Below are positions 1 through 18,259 of a DNA stretch of 64,000 bases, piece by piece. Made by a program: the position numbers and the translations under genes. Location: assembly GCA_033065855.1 (NCBI GenBank), contig JAVXUO010002741.1, positions 62,001 through 126,000 on the forward strand. The letters run 5' to 3'. The notes under the pieces are model-generated. The model had not been told where the DNA came from. It was given only the letters and a program-made list of their open reading frames with translations, and did no database searches. This DNA is from Escallonia rubra. Lineage: Eukaryota > Streptophyta > Magnoliopsida > Escalloniales > Escalloniaceae. The stretch's first letter is position 1. Every line of letters starts with the position of its first letter.

Positions 1-208
1 TACGTAAATCAAATAAGTTCTGCAGGTTATGGCTGATTCTAAATATTGCAGCGTAGGGCATTAGAGAGAGATTTAAAAAGTTCAGAGTTGTGGAAAGATT
101 TAGAAAGAGATTTAAAAAGTCAGGTAAGGGCATTAGTAGGGTAGATATCAAAAGACATTGAAGATCTCCCTCCAAGCCTACGTATGCAATAACTTTAAGA
201 CTGTTATG

Positions 209-367
209 TAGGGCTTTACCCTTGTTTAGAGGGAGCCCTTCCAGAAATTCTCGAAGGCCAAGGCAGAACCCAGGCCAACGAGGGGGTTTGGAAATAGTTT
301 TCAACCAGCAATTGACGCGCCTCGGTTAGAACCTCACTAGCTGCGTCATTGCCCCAAGCGCAAAGAT
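209..367 (-). ncRNA. U4: U4 spliceosomal snRNA gene
   Basis: U4 pairs with U6 snRNA in the U4/U6.U5 tri-snRNP and holds U6 inactive until spliceosome activation. Read on the minus strand, the RNA begins ATCTTTGCGCTTGGGGCAAT, the plant U4 5' end (stem II and 5' stem-loop). It continues with the conserved run GAGGCGCGTCAATTGCTGG (stem I region) and the central stem. An Sm-like site AATTTCTGGA is followed by a terminal hairpin whose arms are AGGGCT and AGCCCT. The total of about 159 nt fits plant U4. A USE and TATA-like box stand upstream at the right distances. The Sm site carries a C where T is usual, so activity is likely but not certain. The 5' end is set by homology; the 3' end is approximate. 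Confidence 0.9.
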
Positions 368-392
368 ACTTTCAAATTGAACCCTGTCCTTG

Positions 393-444
393 TTAATATT
401 GTCATCTTTCACTCCTTCATTTCTTGGATGTCCAATGTGGGACT
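393..444 (-). promoter_or_regulatory. U4 promoter: USE plus TATA-like box
   Basis: On the minus strand AGTCCCACATTG (444..433) matches the plant snRNA upstream sequence element. A TATA-like AATATTAA (400..393) lies about 33 nt downstream and about 30 nt before the U4 start. This spacing is the type used by RNA polymerase II snRNA genes in plants; Pol III U6 genes have a shorter gap. Confidence 0.85.
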
Positions 445-512
445 TGTTAGGAGTTCCCAAGTGTTAAATCTCTCACACACTATCCTAGTTTTGCTTACAT
501 TTTATTAATTCA

Positions 513-785
513 AAGATTGAACATGCCAACAGAAGCAGGGAGAGAGTTATAAGACTCACAACACAAAATCACAAGTCTAATCTATCAAAATCACAAGTCT
601 AATCTCTTATTGTCCATAAGGAACAGCTTCTTCACCCTATTTAAGTAACTTCAAGCAACATTGAGTATGCCCCACATATATGTTACAGATGTTGCACACA
701 TTAGACAGGTTGAAATAATGTTATCAGTATATGATTTTTTGATATTACTTAACTCTTCTTGCATTGTTACTTCAGCTAGAGAGAA
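513..785. repeat. Duplicated flank block C, copy 1
   Basis: This stretch, starting near the words GAACATGCCAACAGAAGCAG, recurs at about 6181-6475, and its later part recurs at about 1930-2060. Each copy runs into the words AGATGTTGCACACA. I see no convincing reading frame in it. It is part of the duplicated spacer DNA between the snRNA genes. Confidence 0.75.
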
Positions 786-933
786 AAAGAATGGTGATTG
801 TTTATGAAGCAGTCAAGATGCGCATCACCACATTTCTTGGTATGCTCTTTTATTTTCCTCTGAACATTGTGCTTACAGATAACCTTATTCAATGTTTTCC
901 ATGGATTTTGGATGATATCGTGATTTTCATTTT

Positions 934-1869
934 AGGGCTAATTACACCTATGTCCCTGAGGTTTGGGGGTAATTACACTCATGTCCACAAAGTTTCAAAA
1001 TGTAACACTTATGTCCATCGACAAACGGAACCCTAAAAATCTTAACGGTTTTAATGAAAAGACTTGATTGCCCCTGACTTTAAAATAAATTACCCAATTA
1101 ATTTACTGTTCATTCTTCTTCTCCCCACACCCCCCCCCCCGCGCCCCAACCCCCCCCCCCACACCCGTCTGCCTCTTCCTCTCCCCACACCCCCCGCCCC
1201 CACGCCGTCTGCGCAGTAGCAGGCCCTCCGGCGAGGCAGGCCGCGGTAGCAGGCCCTCCGGTCGCCACCATCACCGCCGCGACCTACCTCCGTACCCCGC
1301 CCCCATGCCGTCTGCGCAGTAGCAGGCCCTCCGGCGAGGCAGGCCGCAGTAGCAGGCCCTCCGGTCGCCACCATCACCGCCGCGACCTACCTCCGTACCC
1401 CGCGTCGTCCGAGATCGCAAGCATCCCCACCGAGCTACGTCGCGACACCGGCCTCTTCCTTCGAGATGCGCGCCACCGTGACCACCAGTAAGGCAGAGCC
1501 ATCACCACCACGATGGGCTTGCAATGGCCAGATCTGTCTCCTTCCCATCGCCACGGGCTTGCCGGCGTGGTGGGGCAAGGGGAGGGGGGCTGTCGGCGGC
1601 GGCGTGGGGCGGGGGAGGGGGGCTACCGGCGGTGACTTCAGATTTAGGGTTTAAATTGTGGAGAGAGAAAATTAGGATATCAACAGGGGTAGTATTGTCA
1701 TTTTCAAAATACGTATTGACGAAAATTACACTTTTTGGACGGAATACTGACGGTTGGATAAAAGTGATACTTTGTTTAACGTTTTTGGTCACGTATGTTA
1801 CATTTTGAAACTTTGTGGACATGAGTGTAATTACCCCTAAACCTCAGGGATATAGGTGTAATTAGCCCT
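934..1869. mobile_element. Non-autonomous TIR element with GC-rich cargo
   Basis: The left end AGGGCTAATTACACCTATGT is repeated inverted at the right end, and the terminal similarity continues for about 75 bp. A 7-bp target duplication TCATTTT flanks it (927-933 and 1870-1876). The centre (about 1110-1660) is GC-rich, unlike the AT-rich surroundings, and holds two direct repeats of about 102 bp containing GTAGCAGGCCCTCCGG. No transposase is visible. A sibling with the same ends is at 45,066-46,052. The superfamily is not assigned; a Mutator-like type is possible. Confidence 0.8.
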
Positions 1870-2375
1870 TCATTTTACTTGTTAATTGTTAAGCAAGCAA
1901 GGACTTCGAGATTGTAGGTGCAACTCTGTTGCAAATTAATCTCTTAGCGTCCATAAGCAACAACATCTTTACCCTGTGTAAGTAACTTCATTCAGGAACC
2001 AAGTGTCAGAACATCTGACTATGCCACATGTATATTACAGATGTTGCACACAGTAAGGTTGAAAATTTGCGATTGCTATGGTATGAAGATATAACTTACT
2101 TCAACCATAGGAAGAAAAAAAATGCAAACAGAAATTACAGTTATGCAAGGGTGAGCGTTTGTGAAGCAGTCCAAGATGCGCATGACCACATTTCTTGGCA
2201 TGAAATGTGCAATATTTGGTGTGTACCATCCAAATTTGAGCATCTCAAACTCTGCTGACGAGTTCAAGTTGCTTCTGAGTTTCCAGCATGGGCATGCTAA
2301 TTAGAAGTGAAATTTGCCAAAAGTTAAACTACATGGTTCCCTTCCGTTAAAACAAATCACAAAATTTTAAGTAGA

Positions 2376-2520
2376 TTTGGGTGGGGTGCACTAGGCCAAG
2401 GCAGTAGGGCAACACCAAGGCGACGTGCAAGGAACCAGTAGCAAGCTACCATGAACCGTCCCCACAAAAAATTAATTAAACATTGTTTTGAGCCATTGGC
2501 CCACATGTCAGATATTAAAC
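2376..2520 (-). pseudogene. 5'-truncated U2 snRNA pseudogene
   Basis: The minus strand reads from TTTAATATCTGACATGTGGG through the Sm-site region AATTAATTTTTTG to GTGCACCCCACCCAAATCT, matching the U2 body and 3' end. The first ~50 nt of U2, including the branch-point recognition sequence, are replaced by unrelated DNA. No USE or TATA is in place, so it is almost certainly dead. Confidence 0.85.
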
Positions 2521-2644
2521 CATTGTCACTTATAGTGACCCTACCGATAAGGAACTCGCCACCACTCCTGTGCAATGGCAAACTCACAGAGCACTCCCTG
2601 CAAGATTCATGGTTGAAGTGAGGACCTCTATAGTGAGAATCTTA

Positions 2645-2946
2645 GGCCTCGTACGCTACCATATTCGTTTTCTGTTTTTAGCAATGATGATGAAAACGAT
2701 TCTTTTTTTGCGTACTTTTATCATTTTCTGTTTTCGTTTTGGATAAAATTACTCAAATAGTAACAAAAAACTGAAAACACCTAAAATGTGTTTTCAGCTT
2801 TTTTTACTCAAACTTAATCCAATATATAAAAAATAGCTAAATTTTTTTTTTGTGAAAATGATAAAAGTACAGGAACGGATTTTCAAACTGAATATGAAAA
2901 TCATGAAAATGAAAACAGAAAACAAATATGGTAAGCGTACATAGCC
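2645..2946. mobile_element. Tourist-like MITE
   Basis: Ends GGCCTCGTACGCTACCATAT and its near-inverse (ATATGGTAAGCGTACATAGCC) are flanked by a TTA target duplication, the hallmark of PIF/Harbinger-derived MITEs. The interior is AT-rich. A close relative is at 31,083-31,399, and a decayed relative follows directly. Confidence 0.75.
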
Positions 2947-2949
2947 TTA

Positions 2950-3190
2950 GAGACTATATGTTTAACATTTTTCGTTTTGTGTTTTCATTTTCATTATTTT
3001 CATTTTCAGTTAGAAAATAAACTCACGTACTTTTATCATTTTCATCAAAAAAAAATTAGCTATTTTTATTTACATTGTATTTTCAATTTTTTGTCACTAT
3101 TCAAATAATTTTACCCAAACGAAAAAATTTACACACAAAAAAAACCTTTTTAATATTCACTGCAAAAAATCAGAAAATAAAAATAATTAA
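2950..3190. mobile_element. Decayed second copy of the adjacent MITE
   Basis: It shares the internal words ACTTTTATCATTTTCA and AATTAGCTATTTTT, and the homopolymer layout, with the MITE at 2645-2946. The clear terminal repeats are lost. It lies directly beside that element, so the two form a tandem MITE pair. Confidence 0.5.
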
Positions 3191-3245
3191 AATACAGGTG
3201 CTCGCTAAGTTGCTATTTGAAACCAAAATTTCCAAATAAATTTTA

Positions 3246-3372
3246 GGAGCTCTTTCCATATGGAAAGAACACCTCCAAAAATAGGCGTATGCCATTGTAT
3301 ATGGCGAGCACACGGTATTCTTTAGTAAAAGGCGAAAGAATAGTTCGCTTTGTGCTCACCACATGGCTGCGT
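3246..3372 (-). ncRNA. U5: U5 spliceosomal snRNA gene, copy a
   Basis: U5 aligns the two exons in the spliceosome. The minus strand carries the invariant loop 1 sequence within TTCTTTCGCCTTTTACTAAA, closed by a long stem whose arms include GTGAGCAC and GTGTGCTC. The Sm site TATTTTTGGAG is followed by a perfect terminal hairpin CTTTCCATATGGAAAG. The length of about 127 nt fits plant U5. A consensus USE and a TATA-like box lie upstream. This copy looks fully functional. The 5' end (near ACGCAGCC) is placed by distance from the TATA and by stem pairing. Confidence 0.92.
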
Positions 3373-3396
3373 GAGTTGTGAACGAGTAGAAGAGGC

Positions 3397-3450
3397 AAAA
3401 TATTGAACTCCTTACTTCTTTTGTTGCCTTTCTTGGCCAATGTGGGACTA
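3397..3450 (-). promoter_or_regulatory. U5a promoter: USE plus TATA-like box
   Basis: The minus strand shows TAGTCCCACATTG (3450..3438), a good USE, then TCAATATTTT (about 3406..3397) some 34 nt downstream and about 28-30 nt before the U5 start. This is Pol II-type spacing. Confidence 0.85.
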
Positions 3451-3780
3451 TATCTTTTGTTATTTTCTTGGTGTGCATTTTGATGAGTTGTGAGATCCAT
3501 TACAATGGGAGGCACACTTGAAATTTTTGCCTATTGTAATCGTACACGTAGTAATCAAGTAGAACGTATTTTGGAATCCGAAACAGCTTCATAGATCCAA
3601 TTATTATATATTCTAAGAAAATGATCCAGTTATTTCGCAGATATAAGTGCTAGTAGGCTTGTGGCAACAAATGCTTGTAGTGCTTTATTTTGTTTACATT
3701 CATATCTTTGCAATGAAAATCGTGTTTCTTGCTCCGGAATTGAGGCGCTGTTTTCTCTTGCTAGGTATAAGCATCAGTGC

Positions 3781-4635
3781 CCTATCTAACACTTTGGATT
3801 CATTCTATGTGATTCAGGAAATGGAAGTGTAGTTTGATGTGTTCCCCAGCTGTGTGCCAAGATGCTAGTGAGTTTACAAACTCCTGGAGACTCGAGAACA
3901 AATTCATCACCCGGTTGAAGGGCCATACTTGCAGCCCTATCAAAGAAACCAGCATCAGCAGATGTGCGCACACTCATCAGCATGGAACTTGGCAGAACTG
4001 TCACCTTATCTTGAATCAGGCAGTACCTCCTGAGGTACTTCCTTTTCTCTCAGCTTGGCATATTGACAAACGCAAAACATATATATGAGGTATATTGAGT
4101 TTAACAGGAAGGACATGGTTTACATGCCACTACAATGCAAAGGAGAAGATGGATCTTGATTGTGACAATTGTTGAGTTTACCATGGTTTTGGCACCATGA
4201 GTGAATACCCATCCATACCGAGTATATTACGTATATGTTATTCATCCTCCATGTCTTCGATAACATCAAGTCCAGGGGAGGTAGTGATATTTTCCTTTTT
4301 GTTGATATCACTCTTTATTAGAGTTCATATCTCTTCATGTGTTGGTGATCTTCTTGATTGTGTGTTTAATTGTACTATCATATTCTTAGCTTATTTTTAA
4401 TAGTTGTGATTTAGATTGCTCATTAAAAAAAGGTGACAATGAAATTACAGATGCATTCTGTTGTGTCCTTTGTTGTTGTAAGAGCTTAGGAGCTTCTCTC
4501 CTTTTGTTCTGTTTCTTGTTGCCATGTGTAGCTGGTTCTGCGAGTATGCCTGCTATGGTCTGCTTATTCTGATTACTTATTCTGCTAAGCAATCTGAGGG
4601 TTGACACTTGCATGCATACACATAAATGTTGCGCT
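3781..4635. other. Intergenic spacer, no supported gene
   Basis: Several short open frames exist on both strands (for example 4004..3786 minus), but none has a recognisable domain or splice pattern. I see no RNA gene here. Confidence 0.5.
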
Positions 4636-4777
4636 ATGACATGTGGGGCTTTACCCTTGTTTCGAAGGCTAAGGCTGAACCCTGGCCAACAAGAGGGTCT
4701 GAAAGTAAATTTTATCCAGCAATTGATGCGACTCAATCAGAACGTTACTAGCTGCGTCATTTTCCCAAGCTCAAGCG
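4636..4777 (-). pseudogene. U4 snRNA pseudogene lacking the Sm site
   Basis: On the minus strand, GCTTGGGAAAATGACGCAGC, then CATCAATTGCTGG and GTTGGCCAGGGTTCAGCCTT, follow U4 with many substitutions. The 5' end no longer reads ATCTTTGCGC. The segment between GCCTTCG and AAACAAGGGTAAAGCCC, which in the intact copy at 367..209 holds the Sm site, is deleted. There is no USE. Without an Sm site it could not assemble an snRNP. Confidence 0.85.
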
Positions 4778-5145
4778 CTTCCCAAAAATATATTTACAAC
4801 TTAATACAGATTAAGTCAAACCTTGAACAAGTCCACAGATGGAGGGTGAGAGTAATAAGAGGCAAACGCAAAAACACACGTATATTATTTTTAGTGTCAC
4901 CAAGCAGCAGCTTGCTTAATTAACTATAGGCAAAAAGGAGTATCAGAACATCCGAGTATATTACGTATATGTTATTCATGTCGCTAACATTATAGATATC
5001 GATTTCCAGTAGATCGATATTATTCTGTTCCCTTCTAGCTTGAACAAGAGTCTTTTGTGAGCTTGTATTTCTCTCTGAAATCTTCATTTATAGTTTTAGT
5101 GATACTATGTCGAGATAACCAACAACTAGTTGTTTCTTTTCTCCT

Positions 5146-5296
5146 TTTCAGTAACATCCTTTGCTATTATATTTTCTTGGTATGTTGTTCTCCAACTAAT
5201 TAGGTGGGGCGTGGCATGCAGCCGTCATTACTTGGAAAATGATGTGGCTTTACCAGCCCAAGCAATTGTATGGGCATTCTTGATAACCACTTTCAG
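5146..5296 (+). other. Possible coding exon, hydrophobic, unidentified
   Basis: A polypyrimidine tract and CAG precede an open stretch that reads VTSFAIIFSWYVVLQLIRWG and continues with LPAQAIVWAFLITTF, which looks like one or two membrane segments. It ends near TTTCAGGCATGTG, which would need a GC donor. I do not recognise the family. It could be an exon of a plus-strand gene whose other pieces may include 8780-8950 and 16326-16470, or a chance open frame. Confidence 0.25.
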
Positions 5297-5435
5297 GCAT
5301 GTGCAAAATTCTCTTTTACTTAATACCTATTAAGTCAATTGTTGTTTCAGACAGATTCATTAAATCTTGACTCTACTTTGAAACTCGGCAACATTGTCCT
5401 CATTCCACCCAAACTTACACAATGTTAGATACTTA

Positions 5436-5560
5436 CTTGGGTAGACCTTAGGCGAGCACCCCTCCAAAGTGCAATGAAAGTCACTAACCTAGGCCTATCC
5501 TTGTTTATATTGTCATCTTTTCACTCCTCCATGTCTTGGATGTCCAATTTGGGACTTGTT
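5436..5560 (-). pseudogene. Chimera of U4 promoter and internal U1 sequence
   Basis: The minus strand 5556..5496 copies the U4 promoter, including a USE-like AGTCCCAAATTGG and ACAATATAAAC. It then joins directly at 5495 to U1 sequence starting in its middle (GGCCTAGGTTAGTGACTTTC) and running to CTACCCAAGT at 5436. The U1 5' end, the Sm site and stem-loop IV are absent. The U4 flank further upstream (block D, to about 5625) is also shared with 384-500. It is a recombinant pseudogene. Confidence 0.85.
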
Positions 5561-5625
5561 AGGAGTTCCCAAGTGTTATATCACTTAACCACCCTCACAC
5601 ATACTATCCTAGTTTTGCTTGCACA

Positions 5626-6180
5626 TGGGAGCAATGACAGATCAATAAATTAGGATAATACCAATTAAAAAGACAAATGTGGAGAAAAGGGGACAGAAGC
5701 ATGATCTATAAACAAATTCAAAGCCAAACTCAAATAAAATAGTCAATATACATAAGAATTAGAATTTTTCATTGGAAGTGGAGGTGATATTTTGAAATTA
5801 AAATTGGTATAACGTAAACAAAAATGTTTAATTGGAAGTGAAAACAAACAAAACTTTCTTTCTGTGAAACCGAGAAAAAGAGATTTGTGGAGAAGAAAAT
5901 GAGAAATTAAATGATAAAAGGCCATTTAAATGATGACAGAGATATATTAGGGAGACTTTTGAAATTGAAATGGCTAAATTTGATTGGTTTGTGCACATAA
6001 TTGAGGTGCCTAGAAGATAGGTATTGATTAAAGAGAGTCAAATAAAAAAAAGGTTGATCCTACATAAAAAATTAATTAATCCACATGGCAGAAGAGAGAA
6101 CGACCACGTAGGCGGTGACGTGGCAACATTATTTCAGCTTCGACTTTCATATATATATATATAATTAGATGCGTATTAAC
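5626..6180. other. AT-rich spacer, no gene seen
   Basis: No supported coding or RNA feature. A short (AT)n tract lies near 6151-6162. Confidence 0.5.
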
Positions 6181-6475
6181 TCAAAGCTTGAACATGCCAA
6201 CAGAAGCAGGGGGAGAGTTATAGGAGGCACAACACAAAATTACAAGTCTGATCTATCAAAATCACAAGTTTAATCTCTTAGTGTCCATAAGCAACAGCTT
6301 CTTTACCCTATGAAAGTAACTTCAAGCAGAATTAAGTTTCAGAACATCGAGAATGCCACATATATATTACAGATGTTGCACACATTAGACAGGTTGAAAT
6401 AAATGCTATTAGTATGATTTGTATGACATAACTTATCTCAACTCTTCTTGCATTGTTACTTCAGCTAGAGAGAAA
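6181..6475. repeat. Duplicated flank block C, copy 2
   Basis: About 80% or more similar by eye to 513-785, from GAACATGCCAACAGAAGCAG to GCATTGTTACTTCAGCTAGA. It is non-coding spacer of the snRNA cluster. Confidence 0.75.
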
Positions 6476-6505
6476 AAATGCTATTAGTATGATTTGTATG
6501 ATATA

Positions 6506-6966
6506 GCTGATTCTTTCTTCATAATATGACTTGATATTATTACCAATTACCAATCTAATTAGTAAGAACTGCATTCAATTGAACAGAAAATAGAATTTTT
6601 AACTTTAGCCTCAGTTTCTTATTGCATACAGACATGATGGAGCCCTCTGCTATTCAAGAATGTCGGCAACCGCTTTTGATAGTTCTACTCACCATAGTGA
6701 TACATGGAAATTAGGAAATAACATAATCAAGGAATAGTGCAACGCCAAGGCGCAAGGAACCAGCAGACTGTAATAAGCTGTTAATGTGATCAGAATACTG
6801 TGACTTGGTCAAACCTGCCTCTTTCAGATACTGGAAATTCGAATTAGAATCTAATTTATGGCTTCTCTAATGCATTACCTATTAGAATGGAGAGCTTGCG
6901 AGCTGATTGATTGACATAAAATTATGTTCAAGCTGATCGACGAGACATAAAATTTTGTTTAAACTA
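6506..6966. repeat. Segmental duplication B, copy 1
   Basis: It recurs at about 13,640-14,041 with shared words such as TCTTTCTTCATAATATGACT and CTTCTCTAATGCATTACCTA. It contains a small piece of U2 3' sequence at about 6735-6765 (minus: GGTTCCTTGCGCCTTGGCGT). In copy 2 the block runs straight into a truncated U2; here it does not. Confidence 0.8.
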
Positions 6967-7833
6967 AGCATACCTTTCACAGACATAGTATTATCAACAC
7001 GATGGAGCTCACTGATATTCGAACAAAATGAAACCACTTCTGATTTACTTTATTACTTCCTACACTCGCGCTTTCAAATTACAGATGTTCATCTTAAATT
7101 TTGCCTTGTTCAGAGCTCCTCAAGGACTTTAGAGCTTGATATTCTCTTTGTCGTTTCCTGTTCAAGCTGCTTAATATACCATTTTAGTGACAATGAATTA
7201 GATCTGAGATATACAATCCATGCTGTGAGTCATAACGGCCTATCTAGGATGGTCTAAGAAGCCCTGACAATAAAACCGTTGAACTTGGGGATATCTAGCT
7301 GAAACTAAGGGAGCTACGTTATAGCAATGTTTGAGAAGAGTGACTTAATGTCATTCTTGAGCTCTGCTTCTAGAGCGTGAAGTGCTATCGGAATGTAAGG
7401 TAAGCAAGATGTCCTTCTTACACCCTAGTATGCACTATAGTGAAAAAAGGTCTTAGTAAGGCTCTTTGCTTTTGTGTCCCTAACTTACCTACTTTAGGAG
7501 GTAATTGAATACTAATCATACTTGTTTGTAAGTCTACCACTTAGCTTTCTTTTTCTCTCTTTTAGTAAGGATAACTCCCTTTGTTTTTAAAGTATCTTAA
7601 AGGTGTTGATTGTGCTTGTTTTTGCTATAGCTCTATACCACTTAGCTTCCTTACTTTCTGAGAGCAAAGAGATAAGGGATGTCCTTCTAATCTCCAACTA
7701 TATATGCTAGTATGGTTAAGTGGAAGAACAAAGGAGTGTCGTGAGCAACTTCGACTTCAAATAGTTTGAAATAGAGCTGTGTAGAATCAAAAGGGTTATT
7801 TTCGGGTTTTATTAAAGAATACGATATTAAATA
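6967..7833. other. Spacer, no gene seen
   Basis: Short open frames only, without a recognisable product. Some words near 7080-7150 resemble pieces at 4446 and 17,640, suggesting old duplicated non-coding DNA. Confidence 0.4.
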
Positions 7834-8344
7834 CTCCTTCCGTCCCTCATAAATTGATCATCTTTCCTTTTTAGGCCGTTCCAAAAAAATTGCTCACTTT
7901 CCAAATTAAGAAAGATTCTATATGTGTGTTTCCGTACTTACCCTTTTTACGCTTTTTTTATTAAATTTATCTCTCCACATTTAACTCTCATCCAACTCAT
8001 TTTCTATCTCTTGGCCTATCTTCTTACTTTTTTTTTACTCTATTTCTTTTTAGGCTATCTCATAAGAATTGCTCACTTTCCAAATTAAGAAAGATTTTAT
8101 ATGTGTTTTTCCGTACTTACCCTTTTTACGTTTTTTTTATTCAATTTCTCTCTCCACGTTTAACTCTCCACCAACTTCTATCTCTTGGCCTATCTTCTTA
8201 CATTTTTTACTCTATTTCTTTCTCCTGTCCCACTTTCTTCCGCTCCTCTCTCTAAAGGGTAGAATGAAAAATATACAATATATGATATAAATTCTTAATC
8301 TGCGCGCAAAAATAAAGCGATCGAGTTATGTGGGACGAAGAGAG
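7834..8344. mobile_element. Stowaway/Mariner-type MITE with internal duplication
   Basis: The left end CTCCTTCCGTCCCTCAT and inverted right end (CTCTCTTCGTCCCACAT on the minus strand) are bordered by TA, the Mariner target duplication. The inside holds two direct repeats of about 175 bp, from TTTTTAGGC..TTGCTCACTTTCC to the T-rich tracts. No transposase is visible. Confidence 0.8.
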
Positions 8345-8779
8345 TAGCTTTTTGACCAGTAGGTTTTTCATGCAGGTAGATTATATCATCTTTTTCAGTC
8401 TACTCATCTCGTTACTCCATTGTACGAAGCTAAAGCGTCAAACTATCCTGGATATTAGTGCTTTTCTGAATACTCTTTCACCCTTACCTAAACTCCATAA
8501 TAGATACTACCTGCATATAGTTGTTTCAAGTACTACATGAAATACTTTTTTCAGATGAATGGTCCTTATAGTAATAGAACCCGAGGACGTCATATTTTCA
8601 TTTCTGGTGCTTACAGGGGATGAGTCATTTTTTTTTTATTTCAGACGACTGTAAATCTTGTTTCTATATTTGCCACTATCTTGCTTGAAGACCAAAACAG
8701 GGTTTTTCTTGTTGCAACAAGAGTAGAACCAAAAAGAAAGAGCTTCTCAGCCAAGAACTGAGTACATGATCCTTTTTAG

Positions 8780-8950
8780 CAAGTACATAGAAATGAATGA
8801 ATATGTAGGATATGCAAAACTTGATGAAAAAGCGAGGCCGATTCTCATGCTTTTCTTAGTTAAAGCAGGGCACAATGTTTTGAGGCTGGAAACTCACTTG
8901 AAAAGGGCACTGCAGCTCAAGTTAAAAGAAGAAGTTGATGACTTTAAATT
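8780..8950 (+). other. Possible coding exon, unidentified
   Basis: A clean 3' splice site (CCTTTTTAG) and a strong donor (GTGAGTTAAT) bound a 171-nt open stretch reading KYIEMNEYVGYAKLDEKARP and ending EEVDDFKL. The composition is protein-like: charged, helical and without low complexity. I do not recognise the family and cannot chain it to other exons with confidence. Confidence 0.4.
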
Positions 8951-9065
8951 GTGAGTTAATCTGCTCTATTCTTTTGTGTCAGACTTTGAAATTTATTCTA
9001 CTTTCGTACGGTTATTTTAAGCCACTTATTTAACGACTTTCTTACAAATCAAGAACTTTTACCGT

Positions 9066-9128
9066 TCTGCACACAAAATTCTTACTAAAGGTGAAAGAAC
9101 GTGCTCACCACATCGGCTGTGTGACGTA
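9066..9128 (-). pseudogene. Decayed U5 snRNA fragment
   Basis: The minus strand GATGTGGTGAGCACGTTCTT and then a stem-like TAAGAATTTTGTGTGC follow U5 stem I, but the invariant loop is altered (CACCTTTAGT in place of CGCCTTTTACT). No promoter or Sm site follows. It is a dead fragment. Confidence 0.75.
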
Positions 9129-9235
9129 GGGATTGCGTTATAATAAGTAACCAAGAACCTTCGCCTGAAACGATTAATTTTGTCAAACTGATAGGAACAG
9201 ATACTTGTTAATTTGCTCAATTTAAACAAAAATCA

Positions 9236-9545
9236 AGTTGATACTATTACTTGGTGCCAAGTGTTTTGAGAGCTTCCTTGTGTGTATATCCAGCTCCCTC
9301 TCCCACCTCAAGTGTTAGTTTTAGTGACCCTACCGCTACGGAACCTCGCACATGCCCCTGTGCAACCAGAACCTCACACCCACTCCCGAGCAACTGAGGT
9401 TCAAAACTAAAATGAAGAGCTCAGAACCTCAAACCCGCTAAGTGCAACCGGAACCTCGCACCCACCCTGTCACGTGCGACTCAGATTCGAGTTAAAGTGA
9501 GGACTCACATTTTCAGTTAAAATAAGGAGCTCAGAACCTCGCACC
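9236..9545. repeat. Dispersed spacer repeat E (copy 1)
   Basis: The words TTGGTGCCAAGTGTTT and CTCCCTCTCCCACCTCAAGT, plus a repeated CGAACCTCGCACC theme, recur at 10,620-10,860, and in part at 2525-2640. Non-coding. Confidence 0.65.
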
Positions 9546-10289
9546 TAGGGGTGCAACTTGGGTTGGGAACCCGTGGGCAATCTGTGCCAACCCGTAGAAA
9601 TATGGGCGTGGGCCTAGTATCATAGTGACCGCAGTGGACACAGACACAAAAATTTTAAGCCCTCAAAAAATATGGGCTGGGCATGGGCAAAGGTTTTTCG
9701 AAACCCGCCCAACCCGTCGAATTTTTATGTTAGATATGAATCACAAATATACATTTTACGTTTACAAGACATGCAATTTTTTTATTTAGTCTTTAAAATC
9801 CTCGAACGATATGCGTTTAGAGACCTTTGAAGACTTATTTCTTTCTCCCTTGTTTCTTATGACAAGATTACACTCTGTAAGATTGTTTCTCAATCCTTTG
9901 TCTTTTTCTTTTTCTTTTATTTTGTCCTGAAACTTTATTTTCACGCTTATAACTAAATGCATTTTGAGACTTTACTATACTCTTCTTTATTATCATGACT
10001 ATGTAGTATACTTCGATGGTAAATGATATGCTTAAAATTGAATAAATAAAAATACATAACTAATTAGTAGACTTGGATGATAATTGATATGCGTTAAAAT
10101 TAAGTAAACAAAAGTTAATATGACCACCATGGACAATCCGTGGGCAGTCCATGTTCAACCCATGCCCATGGGCCAGACATGGACATATATTATTTGGGTC
10201 GTAGAAGGGTTGGGCTAGACAGGAACACGAGTTTTTTAGAGTGGGCTGGGCATGGTTTGACTCTTGGGCCTGTCCAAGTTGCAACCCTA
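9546..10289. mobile_element. hAT-type non-autonomous element
   Basis: TAGGGGTGCAACTTGG at the left and its near-inverse CAAGTTGCAACCCTA at the right bound the element. The flanks CTCGCACC (9538-9545) and TTCGCACC (10,290-10,297) form an 8-bp target duplication with one mismatch. Ends and duplication length fit the hAT superfamily. No transposase is visible. Confidence 0.8.
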
Positions 10290-10489
10290 TTCGCACCCAA
10301 TCCCATGCAACCGGAACCTCACAACCACTCCTGTGCAAATAAGATTCATAATTGAAGTGAGCAACTAAGATTCATAATTGAAGTGAGGACCTAAGTCACA
10401 CGCACTCCCTACATCAGAGGAAGTGAGGAGGTAATCTGATTATTTGTGCTATTTTGAATAAAAATTTCCTTACAAATTTTAGAAGCTCA

Positions 10490-10540
10490 TCCCGTATGGA
10501 AAGAACCCCTCCAAAAATAGGCTCATCCCGTACGGAGAGA
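10490..10540 (-). pseudogene. 3' fragment of U5 snRNA
   Basis: The minus strand reads CCTATTTTTGGAGGGGTTCT and then a hairpin CTTTCCATACGGGATG, which are the U5 Sm site and terminal stem. The loop 1 half is missing. The downstream flank matches that of the U5 copies at 3246 and 11,536. Confidence 0.75.
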
Positions 10541-11479
10541 GATGTACGGAGACAAAAATGGATCCATACATTGATGGAATCGTGAAATTTTTTTTTTGAA
10601 TGCAACCTTTCCTCAAAGGTGATGCTATTATTTGGTGCCAAGTGTTTATGAGAACTTCATTGTTTGTATACCCTGCTCCCTCTCCCACCTCAAGTCTTAG
10701 CTATAGTGACCCTACCACTACCGAACCTCGCACCTACCCTCGTGCAACCAGAACCTCCACCCACTCCCGTGCACTGGAACCTCACAATCACTCCCGTGCA
10801 ACTAAGATTCATGGTTGAAGTCAGGACCTCAAGTCTGAATTTAGGGACTACGCACCCACTCCTAGCAATCAATAGCTTAGACATTGGAGGCAAAGGACGT
10901 TGATTCCGGTTGCGATTCTGGTGTGGCAACATTTCAAGCATGTTCTTATCTTGGGGTTTTGGAACGGGAAAAGGAAGTCAGTATATTAGGCTTAAACCTA
11001 CTTTGACATAATGGAAGGTATACTTTCATTATATTACTACCCTTTTATTTGTTCTTTCCTGCATTGGGAAGGCATTTTACTACCATTTCATTGATGTTTA
11101 TCCAACATACATGCTTATGTTTCCCGATATGTCCAGTGGCTCTATACTCCTAATATTAAGGGGTTTTCTCTTTAAGATCTCTAGTGTACTGCCTATTCAA
11201 CTTTGCCATGCTTGTATATACTTGCACTCATGTGTGTGGCAAAAGGTGGGACACAAATCTCAGACTATTTAGTGGTATTTGTTGACAAAAGAATTAATGG
11301 ATCACTCGCATTTACCCGTCCAGACGTTGTTGCTGGAAGCTTAGGAATTTTTCTGGTCAATTAGCTGCCTACAGCGTGCACGCGCCTCTGTGCATAACCT
11401 CCTGCCCAATCCCATGCATCTGAGATTGAAAGTTGAAATGAGGCCGTCCTGTGCATCTAAAAGATTGAAAGCATTAAGT
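10541..11479. other. Spacer with repeat E copy 2, no gene
   Basis: 10,620-10,860 repeats the spacer at 9236-9330. The rest shows no supported gene. Confidence 0.5.
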
Positions 11480-12060
11480 AAGAAGATAATCTGATGTATT
11501 GCGCTACTTTGACCAAAAATTACTCACAAATTTTAGGAGCTCATTCCATGTGGAAAGAACCCCTCCAAAAATAGGCGTATGCCACTGTATATGGCGAGCA
11601 CACGGTATTCTTTAGTAAAAGGCGAAAGAATAGTTCGCTTTGTGCTCACCACATGGCTGCGTGAGATTTGATTGAGTAGAAGAGCCAACATATTGAACTC
11701 CCTAGTTCTTTTGTTGGCTTTCCCAGCCAATGAGGGACTATTCCTTTTTTAGTTTTCTTGGTGTGTGATTTGATGACTTGTTAGATCCTTTACAATGAAT
11801 GGCACACTTGAAATTTTGACCTATAATAGTCATCAACATGGCAATCAAGTAGAACGTATTTGGAATCTGAAACAGCTTCCTAGATCCAATTATTATATAT
11901 TCTAAGAAAATAATCCAGTTATTTCGCTGCTATTAGTGCTAGTAGGCTTGAGGTAACAAATGCTTGTAGTGCTTTGAGTTGTTTATGTTCGTACTTTGCA
12001 ATGAAACTTGTGTTTCTTCCTTCCGAATTGAGGCACTAATTTCTCTCGTCAGGTACAAGA
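11480..12060. repeat. Segmental duplication A, copy 2 (contains U5)
   Basis: Second copy of the U5-bearing block at 3190-3780, same orientation, with scattered substitutions and small indels. Confidence 0.85.
11536..11662 (-). ncRNA. U5: U5 spliceosomal snRNA gene, copy b
   Basis: The transcribed region is nearly identical to copy a. Loop 1 CGCCTTTTACTAAAG and stem I are intact, and the Sm site TATTTTTGGAG is present. The terminal hairpin is slightly weaker (CTTTCCACATGGAATG). The upstream USE reads AGTCCCTCATTGG, so the core TCCCACA has changed to TCCCTCA, while a TATA-like CAATATG stays in place at 11,695..11,687. The RNA could be functional, but transcription may be reduced. This may be a recently weakened or silent copy. 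Confidence 0.8.
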
Positions 12061-13639
12061 AAATGATCAAGTTATTTCGCAGCTGTTAGTGCTAGTAATT
12101 GCGGAAAACAGATAAAAGTAAGGGGGGGGGGGGGGTGGGAAAGCAGTTGCTTTGTTAGTAATAGAGAGCTGATTTCAATGTCAAGACTCGAGACCAAGGG
12201 TGTTTTGAAAAATTTTGTTTTGTGTTCCTCCACTAAACTAAGGCAACTGCTGGCCAAGTTGTGTCCTTACAATTTCTGCTTTAGATTGGAAGCTCTTTGG
12301 CGGTGAGGGATTTTGGGGTTTTCAACCCCAAGTAGGTAACCTCTTATAGTGCGCTCTCTAATTGTGTAATACCTCAAGTTTGGCAAAAACTCTTAAACTT
12401 TCATCACTGAAATAGTGGAAGTTTTCCCCAGGGATTTATTCCGCCAAATGATTGTGTTTTGTCTTTGATTTATTGTTCTTGAGTGCCTCTGATTACTACT
12501 GGATTTGTAGAAATCATTTTGTGATCTTGATTAGAGCTTTTGTAAATAGTGTGCTAGTGTTGATTTATTTACTTCACACTCGATACTCTACCTTGGGATT
12601 ACTGCTGTTTTGATCCCAACAAAATTATTATTAACCACCCCTAAGACTTGCATGTACAATGACAGAGAGACCCGTTGCCGGTGTTGGGGAGTGAGGCATT
12701 TGAAAAAGGTAAAGTCTATATAGTGAGATATTTGAAAATTATTAATGATGTCCCCATAGTGATAAAGAATAAGCAATGTTGGTGTCATTTAAATATGTCA
12801 GGGGGTTGCCATTCCATTTTCCCAAGGGAGTCTAGATATATTCGTAGTCTTGATGCCAAGAAATTCTTATAAGTCTCCATTTGGTTGATCCATTACCTAC
12901 TAGAATGGAGAGCTTGTAAGCTGATTGATGAGACATAAGATTTTCTTGATAGCTCTTTATTAGAATTCTTATAGTTCTTCATCTGTTGGTGTTTTGTTTT
13001 ATTTGTGTTAACTATTCAGTCATAATCTAGATATTGGTAGTTTTATTGGTGAGCTTGCAAAACGATTGACAAGTCAAACCTGCCTCTTTTAGATACTGGA
13101 AATTCAAATTAGAATGCAACCATTTATGTCAAGGAAGTGAGGATCGAGGTACTGCTTCCCTATTAATAAGTCAGAATGCAACCATTTATCAAATTTTCTG
13201 TTGTCCTCGTGATCGTGTTTTCATATAAAAGGCTGTGTTGCTTTGTCTTGACTGTCTTGAGAGCTTGATATACTAGCTTTTATTCTGTTTATGTGATCTG
13301 TGTGGCAAGTTATGGTCCTCTGGTTGAAGCAAGGTTGCTCTTGCTTTGTTATCTAATACGCTGACGTCTACCAATAAAAGATTTGGATTCAGGTTTACTT
13401 TTCTTTAGGCTTCCACCTGTTTGATGAAGCAGCCAATAAGCACGTTTTCTGTGTGTTGCTTGGTTTCAGTTAGAAAATCACATCATGAGAAGCTGGCATT
13501 AGACTACTGCTCCCTGAGCTTGAGATCTTTAGTTTTAAAGTTGTATTTTTCTTCTTATTTTAGCTTTTTCGGTATCCAAACAGAGAATTACTACAGCAGT
13601 AGTTCCAGAAGTTCAATAACTGATTCCGCCGGTTCGATC
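12061..13639. other. Spacer, no supported gene
   Basis: Contains a poly-G run near 12,122-12,135 and words shared with 6815-6930 (for example GTCAAACCTGCCTCTTT). Short open frames only; no recognisable product. Confidence 0.4.
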
Positions 13640-14041
13640 TAGCTGATTCTTTCTTCATAATATGACTTGATATTATTACCAATCTAATTAGTAAGAGCTG
13701 CATTCAATTGAACAGAAAATAGAATTTCTAACTTTAGCCTCAGTTTCATATTGCGTAAAGACATGATGGAGCCCTCTGCTATTTCAAGAATGTCGGCAAC
13801 CGCTTTTGATAATTCTAGTATTCTACTAACCATAGTGATACATGGAAATTAGGAAATAACATAATTAAGGAATAGTGCAACGCCGAGGCGCAAGGAACCA
13901 GTATAAGCTGTTAATGTGATCAGAATACTGGGCCTAATTTATGGCTTCTCTAATGCATTACCTATTAGTATAAGCGAGCTGATTGATTGACATAAAACTA
14001 TTTCAAGCTGATCGATGAGATATAATATTTCATTAAAACTA
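13640..14041. repeat. Segmental duplication B, copy 2
   Basis: Copy of 6506-6966, including a short U2 3' fragment at about 13,872-13,900. It ends where a truncated U2 begins at 14,045. Confidence 0.8.
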
Positions 14042-14044
14042 GAT

Positions 14045-14146
14045 TTGGGTGGGATACCAAGGCAATAGTGCAACGCCAAGGCAACGCTCAAGGAACCTTC
14101 CCCTTCAAAAATTAATTTAATATCGTGTGAGCCATTGGCCCACACG
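14045..14146 (-). pseudogene. 5'-truncated U2 snRNA pseudogene
   Basis: On the minus strand TATCGTGTGGGCCAATGGCT through ATTAAATTAATTTTTGAAGG to ATCCCACCCAAATCT matches U2 from stem-loop IIb to the 3' end. The 5' half is missing. A flank word (GATACATGAGACATAAATTT) is repeated just before the complete U2 at 14,226, suggesting tandem duplication of the U2 3' end. Confidence 0.85.
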
Positions 14147-14225
14147 ATACATGAGACATAAATTTAATAAAAATGGAGAGGTTGCAAGCTGATACATGAG
14201 ACATAAATTTAATTAAAACTAGATT

Positions 14226-14394
14226 TGGGTGGGGTGCGCCAGGCCAAGGCAGTAGTGCAACACCAAGGCAACCACAAACCTTCCCCTCAAAAAATTAATT
14301 TAATATCGTGTGAGCCATTAGCCCACATATCAGATATTAAACTGATCAGAACAGATACTACACTTGATCTTAGCCAAAAGGCCGAGAAAGGTAT
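14226..14394 (-). ncRNA. U2: U2 spliceosomal snRNA gene (short variant)
   Basis: U2 pairs with the intron branch point. The minus strand begins ATACCTTTCTCGGCCTTTTG, followed by GCTAAGATCAAGTGTAGTAT, which includes the branch-point recognition GTAGTA, then stem-loops IIa and IIb. The Sm site AATTTTTTGAGG and the conserved end GGCCTGGCGCACCCCACCC are present. It is about 169 nt, shorter than the ~196 nt usual in plants, because the region between the Sm site and the last stem is reduced. Stem IIb carries substitutions that keep pairing through G-U. A USE-like GATCCCACAGTG and a TATA-like box lie upstream. It is probably an expressed variant, possibly one under relaxed constraint. Confidence 0.88.
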
Positions 14395-14420
14395 GCTTTG
14401 TATTGTGTTCAGCTTCCTTC

Positions 14421-14469
14421 TTTATATGCATGCTCTCTGCAGTCCCTCTTTTTCGCTCACTGTGGGATC
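14421..14469 (-). promoter_or_regulatory. U2 promoter: USE-like plus TATA box
   Basis: The minus strand shows GATCCCACAGTG (14,469..14,458) and CATATAAAG (around 14,428..14,421). The gap is about 30 nt and the TATA sits about 30 nt before the U2 start. The USE deviates at its 3' half from the plant consensus. Confidence 0.75.
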
Positions 14470-14719
14470 AAACAGCAAGTCTATTGTAATTTCTTCGCCA
14501 ACTGATAAAAATTGATCCTACATTTGATTCTCACAAAGAGAGGTAGTTATGTTCAAATTCTTTTCATTTACTTAGTTCGCTACTGATATTTAATTAGCCA
14601 CTGTCTCGCTCAGAAGGTAAAAGGACTGCGAGTTGCAAAAGCATCTACCAAGAAAAACGCAAAGAAAGTGTCTACCTGTACCAAACACCCAACAATGGTT
14701 GAACATGCCCAGACTTGGT

Positions 14720-14955
14720 GAAGATGATTGCAATTGTTTTATGTCTAGGAAGTGGCCCCTTTTATAGATCAGAAAGTGCGTACTTCAAATTACAGAGTGC
14801 AGGCCACTGCTTCCCTTTCTCTAAATCAGATTGCAATTGTTTTTCAAGGAAGTGAGGGTGGAGGTACTGCTTCCCTTTTATAGATCAGAAAGTGTGTACT
14901 TCAAATTACACAGTGCAGGCCACTGCTTCCCTTTCCATAAATCAGAATGCAACCA
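14720..14955. repeat. Tandem direct repeat
   Basis: Two units of about 125 bp share TTTTATAGATCAGAAAGTG and CAGGCCACTGCTTCCCTTTC. Non-coding. Confidence 0.7.
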
Positions 14956-15484
14956 ATTCTGAAATTTCCTGTTATTTTCATGATTGTGTTTTCATATGGA
15001 GGCTGTGTTGCATTGTCTCGAGTGTTTTGAGAGCTTAATATGCTTTCTATTGTGTTTTCTATTGGTTTTTTTTTCTTTTGTTGTGGGGGGAGATTTCTGT
15101 TGCATACCTGAGGTATGCCTGCTTTTCCTTTGGGTTCCACCTGTTTGGCTTACGTTGATAGTTGCAACTGAAAACAATTGACTTGCTATTATGTGGTTTT
15201 TGAGACAGTGTATTTCGGAATTACAAACACTGTTGGAATTCCCTCAGCTTAAACATAGTATTTTGAGCTTATAGATATCTTTTGTTGCACAGGCCTGCAT
15301 TGAGCTCATCCTGTTATGTGGACCTTCGTCTGTGGACAAAATAATTGGAAATCAGATTTTGTTTGGGTGGGTGGGGTGTGCGGCTTGTTAGACTGTACTT
15401 TTTGGGAGTAACTAGGAGCTTAATTGTTGTCCGACTCGATTTATGTAAGAACATGTAATTTTTTTTTAGTTTAACTGCTCTTAC

Positions 15485-15605
15485 TGGCCGTTGCCTAGTC
15501 AGTGGTGCAACACCGACGCAGTCACACCTGTTTGAAACCCGAGCTAACTGGCTGTTGCCTTAGCAGAGGTGCAAGTACAACACAGACGCAGTCACCAGTT
15601 TGAAA
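15485..15605. repeat. Short direct repeat next to U1
   Basis: Two related units contain CTGGC(C/T)GTTGCCT, GGTGCAA and GACGCAGTCAC, about 63 bp apart. I considered a tRNA or U2 remnant but the fit is poor. Confidence 0.5.
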
Positions 15606-15693
15606 GCCACAGTGAAATTCTACAATTACATCAATGGCCCCTCAAACAATAAATTTTATTCAGATGGGAGTACAAAATCTCGAGAGTTTATTG

Positions 15694-15854
15694 GAGGTGG
15701 CCGCGCGAACGCAGGCCCCCACTGCCACAAATTATGACGTAAGTTCCACCACTTGGGTAGACTTTAGGCAAGCACCCCTCCAAAGTGCAATGGAGGTCAC
15801 TAACCTAGGCCATGGACCTTCTTGATCACCCATTGACCCCGTCCAGGTAAGTAT
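15694..15854 (-). ncRNA. U1: U1 spliceosomal snRNA gene
   Basis: U1 recognises the 5' splice site by base pairing. The minus strand starts ATACTTACCTGGACGGGGTC, carrying the 5' splice-site complement ACUUACCU. It continues with stem-loop I (GATCAAGAAGGTCCATGG), stem-loop II (CATTGCACTTTGGAGGGG), stem-loop III, the Sm site AATTTGTGG, and stem-loop IV with a UUCG loop (GGCCTGCGTTCGCGCGGCC). About 161 nt. Stem-loop III differs from the form I remember, but both arms changed together (AAGT..ACTT and CTACC..GGTGG), so pairing is kept. A consensus USE and TATA lie upstream. It looks functional. Confidence 0.93.
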
Positions 15855-15879
15855 GATTCTCTGTGTTGTACCCCCTCCA

Positions 15880-15926
15880 TTTATAGTCTAACTATCACCC
15901 TCGTTCTTCTTTTCCAATGTGGGACT
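15880..15926 (-). promoter_or_regulatory. U1 promoter: USE plus TATA box
   Basis: The minus strand shows AGTCCCACATTG (15,926..15,915) and CTATAAA (about 15,886..15,880), with a gap of about 30 nt. The TATA is about 30 nt before the U1 start: Pol II snRNA architecture. Confidence 0.88.
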
Positions 15927-16325: not shown

Positions 16326-16470
16326 TAGGTGGTTACAGCAAGCGAGTCTTCTAAGACAGCAAAAATGGTACCATCCTTTGAATGAAATGCCAAAGGGATT
16401 GAGAATACGTGCAAGCAAAGAAGAGATGGTTTATGCATTCAGTACTTTGCGGAAAGATCTTTTGCTATGA
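16326..16470 (+). other. Possible last coding exon, unidentified
   Basis: After a pyrimidine-rich tract and CAG, an open stretch reads RWLQQASLLRQQKWYHPLNE, then MPKGLRIRASKEEMVYAF, and stops at TGA (16,468-16,470). The composition is protein-like. I do not recognise the family. It could end a plus-strand gene whose earlier exons lie inside the snRNA cluster, but I could not join the pieces. Confidence 0.35.
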
Positions 16471-18250
16471 AGTAAGGACCTTGCTTTAACTCTTAACACA
16501 TACACCGGAAACTGTCAATATAATTTGTCGAAGCATGCGTGTCTTTTGTTCCAACTCTCAAGGACATAGAGGTACGAGCCTATAGAACAAATCTATTCAA
16601 GCAAGGTTGCAACATGTAGGTAGTCTGTCTGTATATGCTCCTTATTTTTTCCCCCTTGCATTCGTTGCTTTGGAACTTTATTTTGCTAACTATCCCAGAC
16701 CTGCTATATGTGCATGTCTTCTTAACTATCACCAATGACGGTACTTTGGTGGTATTCTGCATTACACGATTCATGAATATGACCAGCCTTATTTTAGTGG
16801 CTTGATTAATACTTGAATGTTTTTCAGGCAAAGATGTATTTACACGGATCAGAATATGTTTAGTGGCTTCTGGGCTGATTCAGAATATTACATCATAGGT
16901 TTAGCCTTCTAAGAGTTGGAGTGGTGGAGAGAGAGAGAGAGAGAGTCGAAAGTCAGGTATGAGCGTAAAACGGGTTCAAGAATCAATTTTGTGTTTATAA
17001 ACGCTAAAATCGATTAATTTGGCTTTTTACCCATATTGTAGGGTGGATCTAGAAAGATATGAAAGATCTCCCTCTAGGCCGTACACATGACACGTTCATC
17101 CAATACGGCTTTCCCCTGTATGAGAAGATTCTAAAGGACCGATAATCTATATCCAATGACTAGGTGCTGGTTTATCTGAGTTAACCCAAATTTTTGGTGG
17201 GCTACACGTGGGTAGTCTGCTCATTTTGTTGGATTATTTAGTTCTTCTGTATACCTGTTTCTGTAGAGATAAATTTTGGTGGGATACAGTGACACAGAAT
17301 GTGGCGAAAACTCTGTAAAGTCAAATTTTGTTTGGGTTGGGTGACTCTAGAGATCGTGCTGCTTGTCAGACTCTAATTTATGGAACTAGGTAAGATCATA
17401 ATTTTGTTGGACTTGATTTGAGTGGGGGTGCGTATGTTTACTAATGTGTTCTGTACTCTCCGCAGGTCCTTTGTTGGCTTCTTCTACCCTCTGCGGGATT
17501 AATACTAAACTCAAGGGTGAGCCATTGTGATTTCTTACCAACTTTAAACCACACAATGGAGTTCACTGCCTCATTATTTATCAATGGAACTCGACCATCT
17601 TTGAGATTCTGCTTATCCTTGTGGCATCCAGGCCTTTGAATTACAGATGCATATATCTTCAATTTCTCAAGGTGGCCTATTCCGGGAGTGTTTTGGGGAG
17701 CTTCATATCTTTAGTTGTGCCAATCAGCTTGCCTCCTTATGCTTCGTTCTGTTTTTTGTTGCCGATTGCGATATTTTGTTGAAGCAATCTGGCTCTTCCA
17801 CCAGTTTTCTTATCTATATTGTCACTTTTACTAGGAAAAATGTACTTATAAGCACTTCCTTTCGGCTTCTACCTGTCCGAGCCAAGTTTACTGATGTTCC
17901 TTGGCTTCACCGTTCGGTTTTATAATTAAGCATTACTTTCTACTTGATTTTCAACGTGAAAATCATATTAAATAGATAAGATAATATCATTTCTAAACTC
18001 TAAAGATCTTCCCCTCGGCCCCCTATATGACCTTTTGTAATTTCCCAAAATGCTTATCGCTAATACCAAATATATGATACTCCCGTAGCGCAACTGGGAA
18101 GAGAAATATATTGTTCTGGCCATACAAAAGAAAAGATATCTTTATCTTACAGACAGTAAAATAAATTAAAGGAAGTTAAGCATTGTTATTATTACAAGTT
18201 TAGATCTAGGCAGCATCTAGTCTACTAGTCCTTGTCATAGATATTGACGA
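16471..18250. other. Spacer, no supported gene
   Basis: A (GA)n microsatellite lies near 16,926-16,945. Words near 17,090 resemble 160-180 at the far left. No convincing coding or RNA gene. Confidence 0.4.
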
Positions 18251-18259
18251 TCTAGCCTT

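What the first reader, a model, noticed from the sequence alone, without database searches (positions are those of the whole stretch)
209..15926. One locus with U1, U2, U4 and U5 snRNA genes, all on the same strand
Five near-complete snRNA genes of four different kinds lie within 16 kb on the minus strand. Four have a USE and TATA at Pol II spacing; U5b keeps the TATA-like box but has a changed USE. Plant snRNA genes are usually described as dispersed or in small groups of one or two kinds. A locus with all four Pol II-transcribed major-spliceosome RNAs would be an unusual spliceosomal gene cluster. Shared flanking blocks show it grew by local duplication. Sequence identity of the RNAs is seen directly; rarity is from memory.
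Basis: partly seen in the sequence, partly recalled or inferred. Interest (0 to 1): 0.93.

Follow-up and report, generated by a model that had tools for sequence, protein, structure and literature searches.

The report
Plant cluster of four spliceosomal RNA-gene kinds
A 17-kilobase stretch of what looks like a plant chromosome holds one-directional genes for U1, U2, U4 and U5, four of the five RNAs of the main splicing machine, among the decayed remains of further copies; it looks like an old, locally duplicated gene cluster, more mixed than the two-kind pairs described in Arabidopsis.

Summary
Rfam models at gathering score find U1, U2, U4 and two U5 copies, all on the minus strand between 212 and 15854, and nothing else in the 64 kb. 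Each has an upstream sequence element (USE); USE-to-TATA distance is about four helical turns, the Pol II arrangement, but the U5 TATA boxes are weak. The locus is larger than reported: decayed copies of U1, U2, U4, U5 and a U3 fragment lie between the genes on the same strand, up to about 17.1 kb. Long-range repeats are 32 direct to 2 inverted, showing same-strand local duplication. The two U5 bodies agree at 115 of 119 sites, their upstream flanks at 334 of 398, suggesting selection on, or conversion of, the RNA. The U2 gene lacks stem-loop III. Arabidopsis has seven U1-U4 pairs and one U2-U5 pair, and some fish have U1-U2-U5 linkage, so the kind is known; no four-kind plant cluster appeared in the listings and passages I saw. 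Expression, species and synteny could not be tested.

The parts
212..367 (-). U4 snRNA gene
   Evidence: Rfam RF00015 106.0 bits, gathering 46; full-length alignment
433..443 (-). USE of U4 (GTCCCACATTG); TATA-like TATTAA at 393-398
   Evidence: 1 mismatch to RTCCCACATCG
196..208 (-). 3'-box-like sequence of U4 (CATAACAGTCTTA)
   Evidence: 1 mismatch to CA(N)3-10AGTNNAA (consensus); such matches also occur behind relics
2381..2558 (-). U2 relic: keeps stem-loop III and Sm site; 5' part replaced by a local repeat, no USE found
   Evidence: 37.5 bits, below gathering 46
3250..3368 (-). U5a snRNA gene; loop 1 GCCTTTTAC and Sm site present
   Evidence: Rfam RF00020 92.4 bits, gathering 40
3438..3448 (-). 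USE of U5a (GTCCCACATTG); weak TATA-like CAATATT near 3399-3406
4645..4778 (-). U4 relic without Sm site; no USE within 2 mismatches upstream
   Evidence: 28.4 bits, below gathering 46; 80.5% over 113 bases
5435..5495 (-). U1 relic (U1 nt 44-104) joined to a U4-type promoter (5494-5623)
   Evidence: 93.4% to U1 over 61 bases; promoter 83% like 383-499
6651..6850 (-). weak U2 3'-end relic inside a duplicated spacer
   Evidence: local score 50 against shuffle maximum 47; no U2-body match there in cmscan, blastn or nhmmer
9001..9200 (-). weak U5 relic with internal deletions
   Evidence: score 50; 0 of 500 single-base shuffles and 0 of 1732 tiles of 18001-64000 reach it. Not found by cmscan, blastn or nhmmer
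10447..10529 (-). U5 3'-end relic with downstream flank
   Evidence: E 2.3e-7, 1.9e-4. Not found by cmscan
11543..11658 (-). U5b snRNA gene
   Evidence: Rfam RF00020 89.9 bits; 115 of 119 identical to U5a
11728..11738 (-). changed USE of U5b (GTCCCTCATTG); weak TATA-like CAATATG near 11689-11696
   Evidence: 2 mismatches to the published USE
14044..14182 (-). U2 relic, 5' half and stem-loop III missing
   Evidence: 32.0 bits, below gathering 46
14230..14394 (-). U2 snRNA gene lacking stem-loop III; branch-site, Sm and loop IV sequences present
   Evidence: Rfam RF00004 129.4 bits, gathering 46; alignment
14458..14468 (-). USE of U2 (ATCCCACAGTG); TATAAA at 14421-14426; 3'-box-like CACCCAAATCTAGTTTTA at the 3' end
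   Evidence: USE 2 mismatches, 3' box 1 mismatch
15694..15854 (-). U1 snRNA gene; 5'-splice-site pairing region, loops I and II and Sm site present
   Evidence: Rfam RF00003 146.8 bits, gathering 69.5
15915..15925 (-). USE of U1 (GTCCCACATTG); TATAAA at 15880-15885
16509..16610 (-). Plant U3 fragment (5' part), relic
   Evidence: RF01847 32.6 bits, E 1.9e-5, gathering 80
16848..17089 (-). copy of the sequence downstream of U4 (within 8-190): trace of a further lost U4 unit; no U4 body found
   Evidence: cmscan of 16600-18000 found nothing

Best explanation
This is a genuine nuclear gene cluster, almost certainly of a plant, that carries Pol II-type U1, U2, U4 and U5 snRNA genes. It arose when a stretch already holding several snRNA kinds was duplicated repeatedly in the same orientation. 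Many copies then lost promoters, 5' ends or Sm sites and became relics, while one U1, one U4, one (possibly two) U5 and a shortened U2 were kept. Each kept gene would be read as its own unit: USE plus TATA at about four helical turns for Pol II, then 3'-end cleavage by the DSP1/CPSF73-I-type complex, with a recognisable 3' box at U2 and U4. The RNAs would join the ordinary spliceosomal pool. Shown: sequence, covariance scores, promoter spacing, strand, repeat pattern, unequal divergence of the U5 body and its flanks. Inferred: transcription, function, order of events, plant origin.
For: Five of five gathering-level hits on one strand within 15.7 kb, none elsewhere in the 64 kb. USE and spacing. 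Relics of U1, U2, U4, U5 and U3, same strand, only in the first 17.2 kb. Repeats more than 300 bp apart are 32 direct to 2 inverted in 1-18000, against 0/2, 7/1 and 0/2 in three other 18-kb segments, two of which overlap. U5 body 115 of 119 against upstream 334 of 398, binomial P 1.1e-5. Full-length alignments to the Rfam models for U1, U4 and both U5 copies, with motif strings present. [quoted passage not shown]
Against: No expression data. U2 lacks stem-loop III, its last stem has non-standard pairs, and its minimum-energy fold (z -2.58; 3 of 200 shuffles fold as well) does not show the canonical structure throughout. U5b has a changed USE; both U5 TATA boxes are weak. One-mismatch 3' boxes lie only 27 (U1), 31 (U5b) and 49 (U5a) bases downstream, and the one exact match in this scan is behind a U2 relic, so the 3'-box test discriminates little. 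One 100-bp bin upstream of U5 is also well conserved (91 of 99). The U5 test cannot separate selection from gene conversion. Some motif strings (all those of U4) were read off the window's own genes, so only the Rfam alignments are independent. Plant origin rests on promoter type, Plant_U3 and gene content; no genome is held.
Confidence: 0.82

Rival explanations
1. The cluster is mostly or wholly a graveyard: all five copies are recent or ageing pseudogenes, and the organism's working snRNAs come from elsewhere.
For: Nine listed relics, some weak, against five genes; U2 lacks stem-loop III; U5b USE changed; weak TATA at U5 and no close 3' box at U1, U5a or U5b.
Against: U1, U4 and U5a keep full-length structure scores, USE and spacing; the U5 bodies are conserved beyond their flanks. 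The U4 relic, by contrast, matches U4 at 106 of 132 aligned sites and lacks the Sm region.
Confidence: 0.12
2. Independent insertions (retroposition of snRNAs) put different kinds side by side by chance.
For: snRNA pseudogenes by retroposition are common in animals (recalled).
Against: The five genes carry upstream promoter elements, duplications include hundreds of bases of flank, and every copy found by Rfam has one orientation.
Confidence: 0.02
3. Assembly artefact: unrelated snRNA loci were joined.
For: Repeats can mislead assembly; the window edge lies close to U4. I did not and could not test for read support or junctions.
Against: Repeat copies are diverged (mostly 65-93% alike) and interleaved: one spacer block lies just downstream of the U2 pair (13636-14041) and again near the U4-type promoter of the U1 relic (6500-6966).
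Confidence: 0.04

Closest known systems
Arabidopsis U1-U4 and U2-U5 snRNA gene clusters (Wang and Brendel 2004, PMC545797; passages seen)
   Same: Different Pol II snRNA kinds in tandem, USE/TATA promoters, some members counted as likely pseudogenes; U1 upstream of U4 as in the relic pair here
   Different: Two kinds per mixed cluster, 180-300 nt (U1-U4) or under 200 nt (U2-U5) apart; here four kinds, kilobase spacers and many relics
Fish U2-U5 and Soleidae U1-U2-U5 snRNA linkage (PMC3464664; passages seen)
   Same: Several snRNA kinds linked
   Different: Animal PSE promoters and, for U2-U5, a tandem array with low spacer variability; no U4 in the fish linkages of the passages seen; here an irregular, decayed plant cluster
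Drosophila U1-U2, U2-U5 and U4-U5 linkages (cited in PMC3464664; passage seen)
   Same: Mixed snRNA kinds linked
   Different: Two kinds named per linkage type; here four
Euglena U3-U5 linkages (PMC2784804; passages seen)
   Same: U3 near U5; attributed to locus duplication
   Different: Convergent genes a few hundred bases apart; here U3 is only a fragment on the same strand

Membership tests
Plant Pol II snRNA genes (U1, U2, U4, U5) | Conserved RNA sequence and structure | tested here: met
   Five hits above gathering score; exception: U2 lacks stem-loop III
Plant Pol II snRNA genes (U1, U2, U4, U5) | USE and TATA about four helical turns apart | tested here: met
   40, 42 and 45 bp start to start for U1, U2 and U4; 42 for both U5 copies, but there the TATA match has 2 mismatches of 6
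Plant Pol II snRNA genes (U1, U2, U4, U5) | 3' box CA(N)3-10AGTNNAA just downstream | tested here: inconclusive
   One-mismatch sites close behind U2 and U4; at U1, U5a and U5b only 27-49 bases away; similar matches behind relics
Plant Pol II snRNA genes (U1, U2, U4, U5) | Transcribed and assembled into snRNPs | not testable with these tools
   No expression data
Arabidopsis-type U1-U4 / U2-U5 clusters | Two kinds in tandem, a few hundred bases apart | tested here: not met
   Same strand, but four kinds with spacers of 1.3-8.2 kb (coordinates)
Homogenised tandem snRNA arrays | Regular, nearly identical repeat units | tested here: not met
   Repeat pairs are irregularly spaced and mostly 65-93% alike

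The most novel reading that the evidence does not exclude
The locus is a maintained spliceosomal-RNA hub: an ancestral unit with U1, U2, U4 and U5 (perhaps U3) linked on one strand, kept together by selection for balanced or co-localised expression, and including a working plant U2 that lacks stem-loop III, a lack described for Leishmania major and Trypanosoma brucei U2.
Probability: 0.1. Interest if true: 0.7.

Novelty: new variant of a known kind. Interest (0 to 1): 0.42.

Why it matters
It shows an snRNA gene family caught in birth and death, with apparently intact genes, a chimera (a U1 body behind a U4-type promoter) and fossils of four kinds side by side. It suggests that the separate U1-U4 and U2-U5 clusters of Arabidopsis could be pieces of a larger linked set, which synteny in other plants could test. 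If the U2 gene is expressed, it would be a natural test of whether stem-loop III is needed in plants.

Tried and rejected
Whole-genome search for other snRNA loci: no genome is held. Related loci by exact patterns: U1 and U5 patterns in viral contigs, 0 hits each; a U5 pattern in genome contigs (prokaryotes), 0 hits. These say nothing about plants. The U5 relic near 9.1 kb is not seen by cmscan, blastn or nhmmer and rests on alignment controls; the U5 end near 10.5 kb is not seen by cmscan but by the other three. A U4 body near 17.1 kb was suspected; cmscan found none, only the downstream flank matches. tRNAs: none found with a bacterial-code scan.

Literature: ten answered searches, of which one search was about U2 stem-loop III and the rest about snRNA genes or clusters. 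Searches listed 20 of 29 and 20 of 25 papers. No listing, and no passage of the eight papers I opened, reports a plant cluster with four snRNA kinds; a yerba mate genome paper with snRNA counts (PMC11709435) was seen only in listings. The library lacks most subscription papers, probably including early plant snRNA work (inference). Rarity is therefore open.

In one search the USE consensus was widened to RTCCCACATYG after the sites were seen; with the published RTCCCACATCG the three best sites have one mismatch each. At up to 2 mismatches the window holds 37 sites against a shuffle mean of 44.6, so a USE alone is no evidence; position relative to a gene is. In that scan ties between TATA candidates were broken towards 42 bp; the distances I report come, where ties go to the more upstream site.
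Full report
Observation. A scan of the whole window with all Rfam families at gathering score returned five hits: U1 15694-15854, U2 14230-14394, U4 212-367, U5 3250-3368 and U5 11543-11658, all on the minus strand. A permissive scan of 1-20000 gave ten hits: these five and five below gathering score on the same strand, two U2, one U1, one U4 and one plant U3 fragment. A permissive scan of 16000-64000 found the U3 fragment again and no other spliceosomal RNA.

Gene quality. U1, U4 and both U5 copies align to their Rfam models end to end. String checks found the U1 5'-splice-site pairing region, loops I and II and Sm site, U4 pairing regions and Sm site, and U5 loop 1 and Sm site; motif roles are recalled, and the U4 strings were read off the window itself, so for U4 only the Rfam alignment is independent. 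U2 keeps the branch-site region, Sm site and loop IV sequence but has lost stem-loop III. A neighbouring U2 relic at 14.1 kb lacks it too, while the relic at 2.4 kb retains it, so the loss may predate the local duplication; a second, independent loss is not excluded. The minimum-energy fold of this U2 (z -2.58; 3 of 200 shuffles fold at least as well) is not canonical throughout. Leishmania major and Trypanosoma brucei U2 also lack stem-loop III (passages of PMC4950102), so the loss need not be fatal.

Promoters. Plant Pol II snRNA genes have USE and TATA four helical turns apart; in U6 and U3 genes the USE is one turn closer (passages of PMC9845283). Start-to-start distances here are 40 (U1), 42 (U2), 42 (U5a), 42 (U5b) and 45 bp (U4). 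U1 and U2 have TATAAA, U4 has TATTAA, and both U5 copies only boxes with 2 mismatches, tied at -38 and -36, further from the RNA start than the -31 or -32 of the others. The USE of U5b and that of U2 have 2 mismatches to the published consensus. The 3' box defined in PMC5079582 (passages) is matched with one mismatch directly behind U2 and U4; behind U1, U5b and U5a such matches lie 27, 31 and 49 bases away, and relics have similar ones, so this test says little.

Relics and extent. BLASTN with 14 gene and flank queries gave 47 rows (E up to 0.1, self-matches included), all within 1-17089; eight are on the plus strand, the best with E 2.6e-4, and these are short matches such as self-complementary stems. 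Twenty dinucleotide shuffles gave 17 hits, the best with E 0.004. nhmmer with the same queries agrees for the main copies, but does not find a U5 match near 9.1 kb or a U2-body match near 6.7 kb. A tiled local-alignment scan with six queries, with the threshold at the maximum of 12780 shuffled tiles per query, gave gene or relic regions on the minus strand between 1 and 17150 and none between 17151 and 64000 on either strand; the two plus-strand hits are the place of the self-complementary U5 3' stem and one marginal match at 8051-8200. The weak U5 relic near 9.1 kb scored 50, reached by 0 of 500 single-base shuffles and 0 of 1732 tiles of 18001-64000.

How it grew. In 1-18000 there are 40 repeat pairs; of those more than 300 bp apart 32 are direct and 2 inverted, against 0/2, 7/1 and 0/2 in 18001-36000, 28001-46000 and 46001-64000 (the first two overlap). 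Flanks travel with genes: 3212-3771 matches 11503-12059 (U5 and about 400 bp upstream, 86%), 6500-6966 matches 13636-14041 (downstream of the U2 pair, 79%), and 503-788 matches 6174-6477 (upstream of U4, 84%). The U1 relic at 5435-5495 sits directly behind a U4-type promoter (5494-5623 against 383-499, 83%), a chimera that recombination between neighbouring snRNA units would make. Sequence downstream of U4 recurs within 16848-17089, so a further U4 unit may once have lain there. The relic pair keeps the order U1 then U4, as in Arabidopsis.

Are they alive? The two U5 bodies agree at 115 of 119 sites, their 400 bp upstream at 334 of 398, and downstream at 49 of 65. With the upstream rate as neutral, P is 1.1e-5; one upstream bin (91 of 99) is also well kept. 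This fits selection or gene conversion on the RNA and is the best sequence evidence of function. For U1, U4 and U2 function is inferred from structure scores and promoters only.

Surroundings. Of 94 stop-to-stop frames of at least 90 aa I scanned ten against Pfam: a RINGv domain at 60797-61126 and DUF3675 at 63644-63940 pass Pfam's cut-offs, and WD40-type and eIF2A matches at 36538-36960 on the minus strand are below theirs. With the plant-type USE promoters and the Plant_U3 match this points to a plant; the species is unknown.

Comparison with the known. Arabidopsis has 10 snRNA clusters: seven U1-U4, one U2-U5 and tandem duplications of U2 and of U5 (passages of PMC545797). Fish have U2-U5 and, in Soleidae, U1-U2-U5 linkage, and Drosophila U1-U2, U2-U5 and U4-U5 (passages of PMC3464664). 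In 2009 no U3-U5 linkage was known outside Euglena, and U3 was otherwise reported directly linked only to tRNA genes among small-RNA genes (passages of PMC2784804). The present locus is thus of a known kind but carries all four Pol II major-spliceosome snRNAs, which none of the listings or passages I saw reports for a plant. It is a new variant of a known kind, of moderate interest: useful for the evolution of snRNA genes, not a new mechanism.

Noticed in passing
935-1868 and 45067-46051: Two elements with similar inverted ends (GGGCTAATTACACC) and 9-bp target-site duplications (TTCATTTTA; TTGAAAAAA), as expected of non-autonomous Mutator-like elements (class recalled); the first lies inside the snRNA cluster.
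   Followed up: partly
2644-3184 and 31072-31400: A palindromic (fold-back) element between U5a and the U2 relic; 2644-2940 has an inverted 88% copy at 31089-31400.
   Followed up: no
5435-5623: Chimeric relic: U1 nucleotides 44-104 directly behind a U4-type USE/TATA promoter.
   Followed up: partly
19391-21969: Frames on the minus strand that read like pieces of an L1-type LINE (by eye; three frames gave no Pfam match).
   Followed up: no
14044-14394: U2 gene and adjacent U2 relic both lack stem-loop III, while the relic at 2381-2558 retains it.
   Followed up: partly
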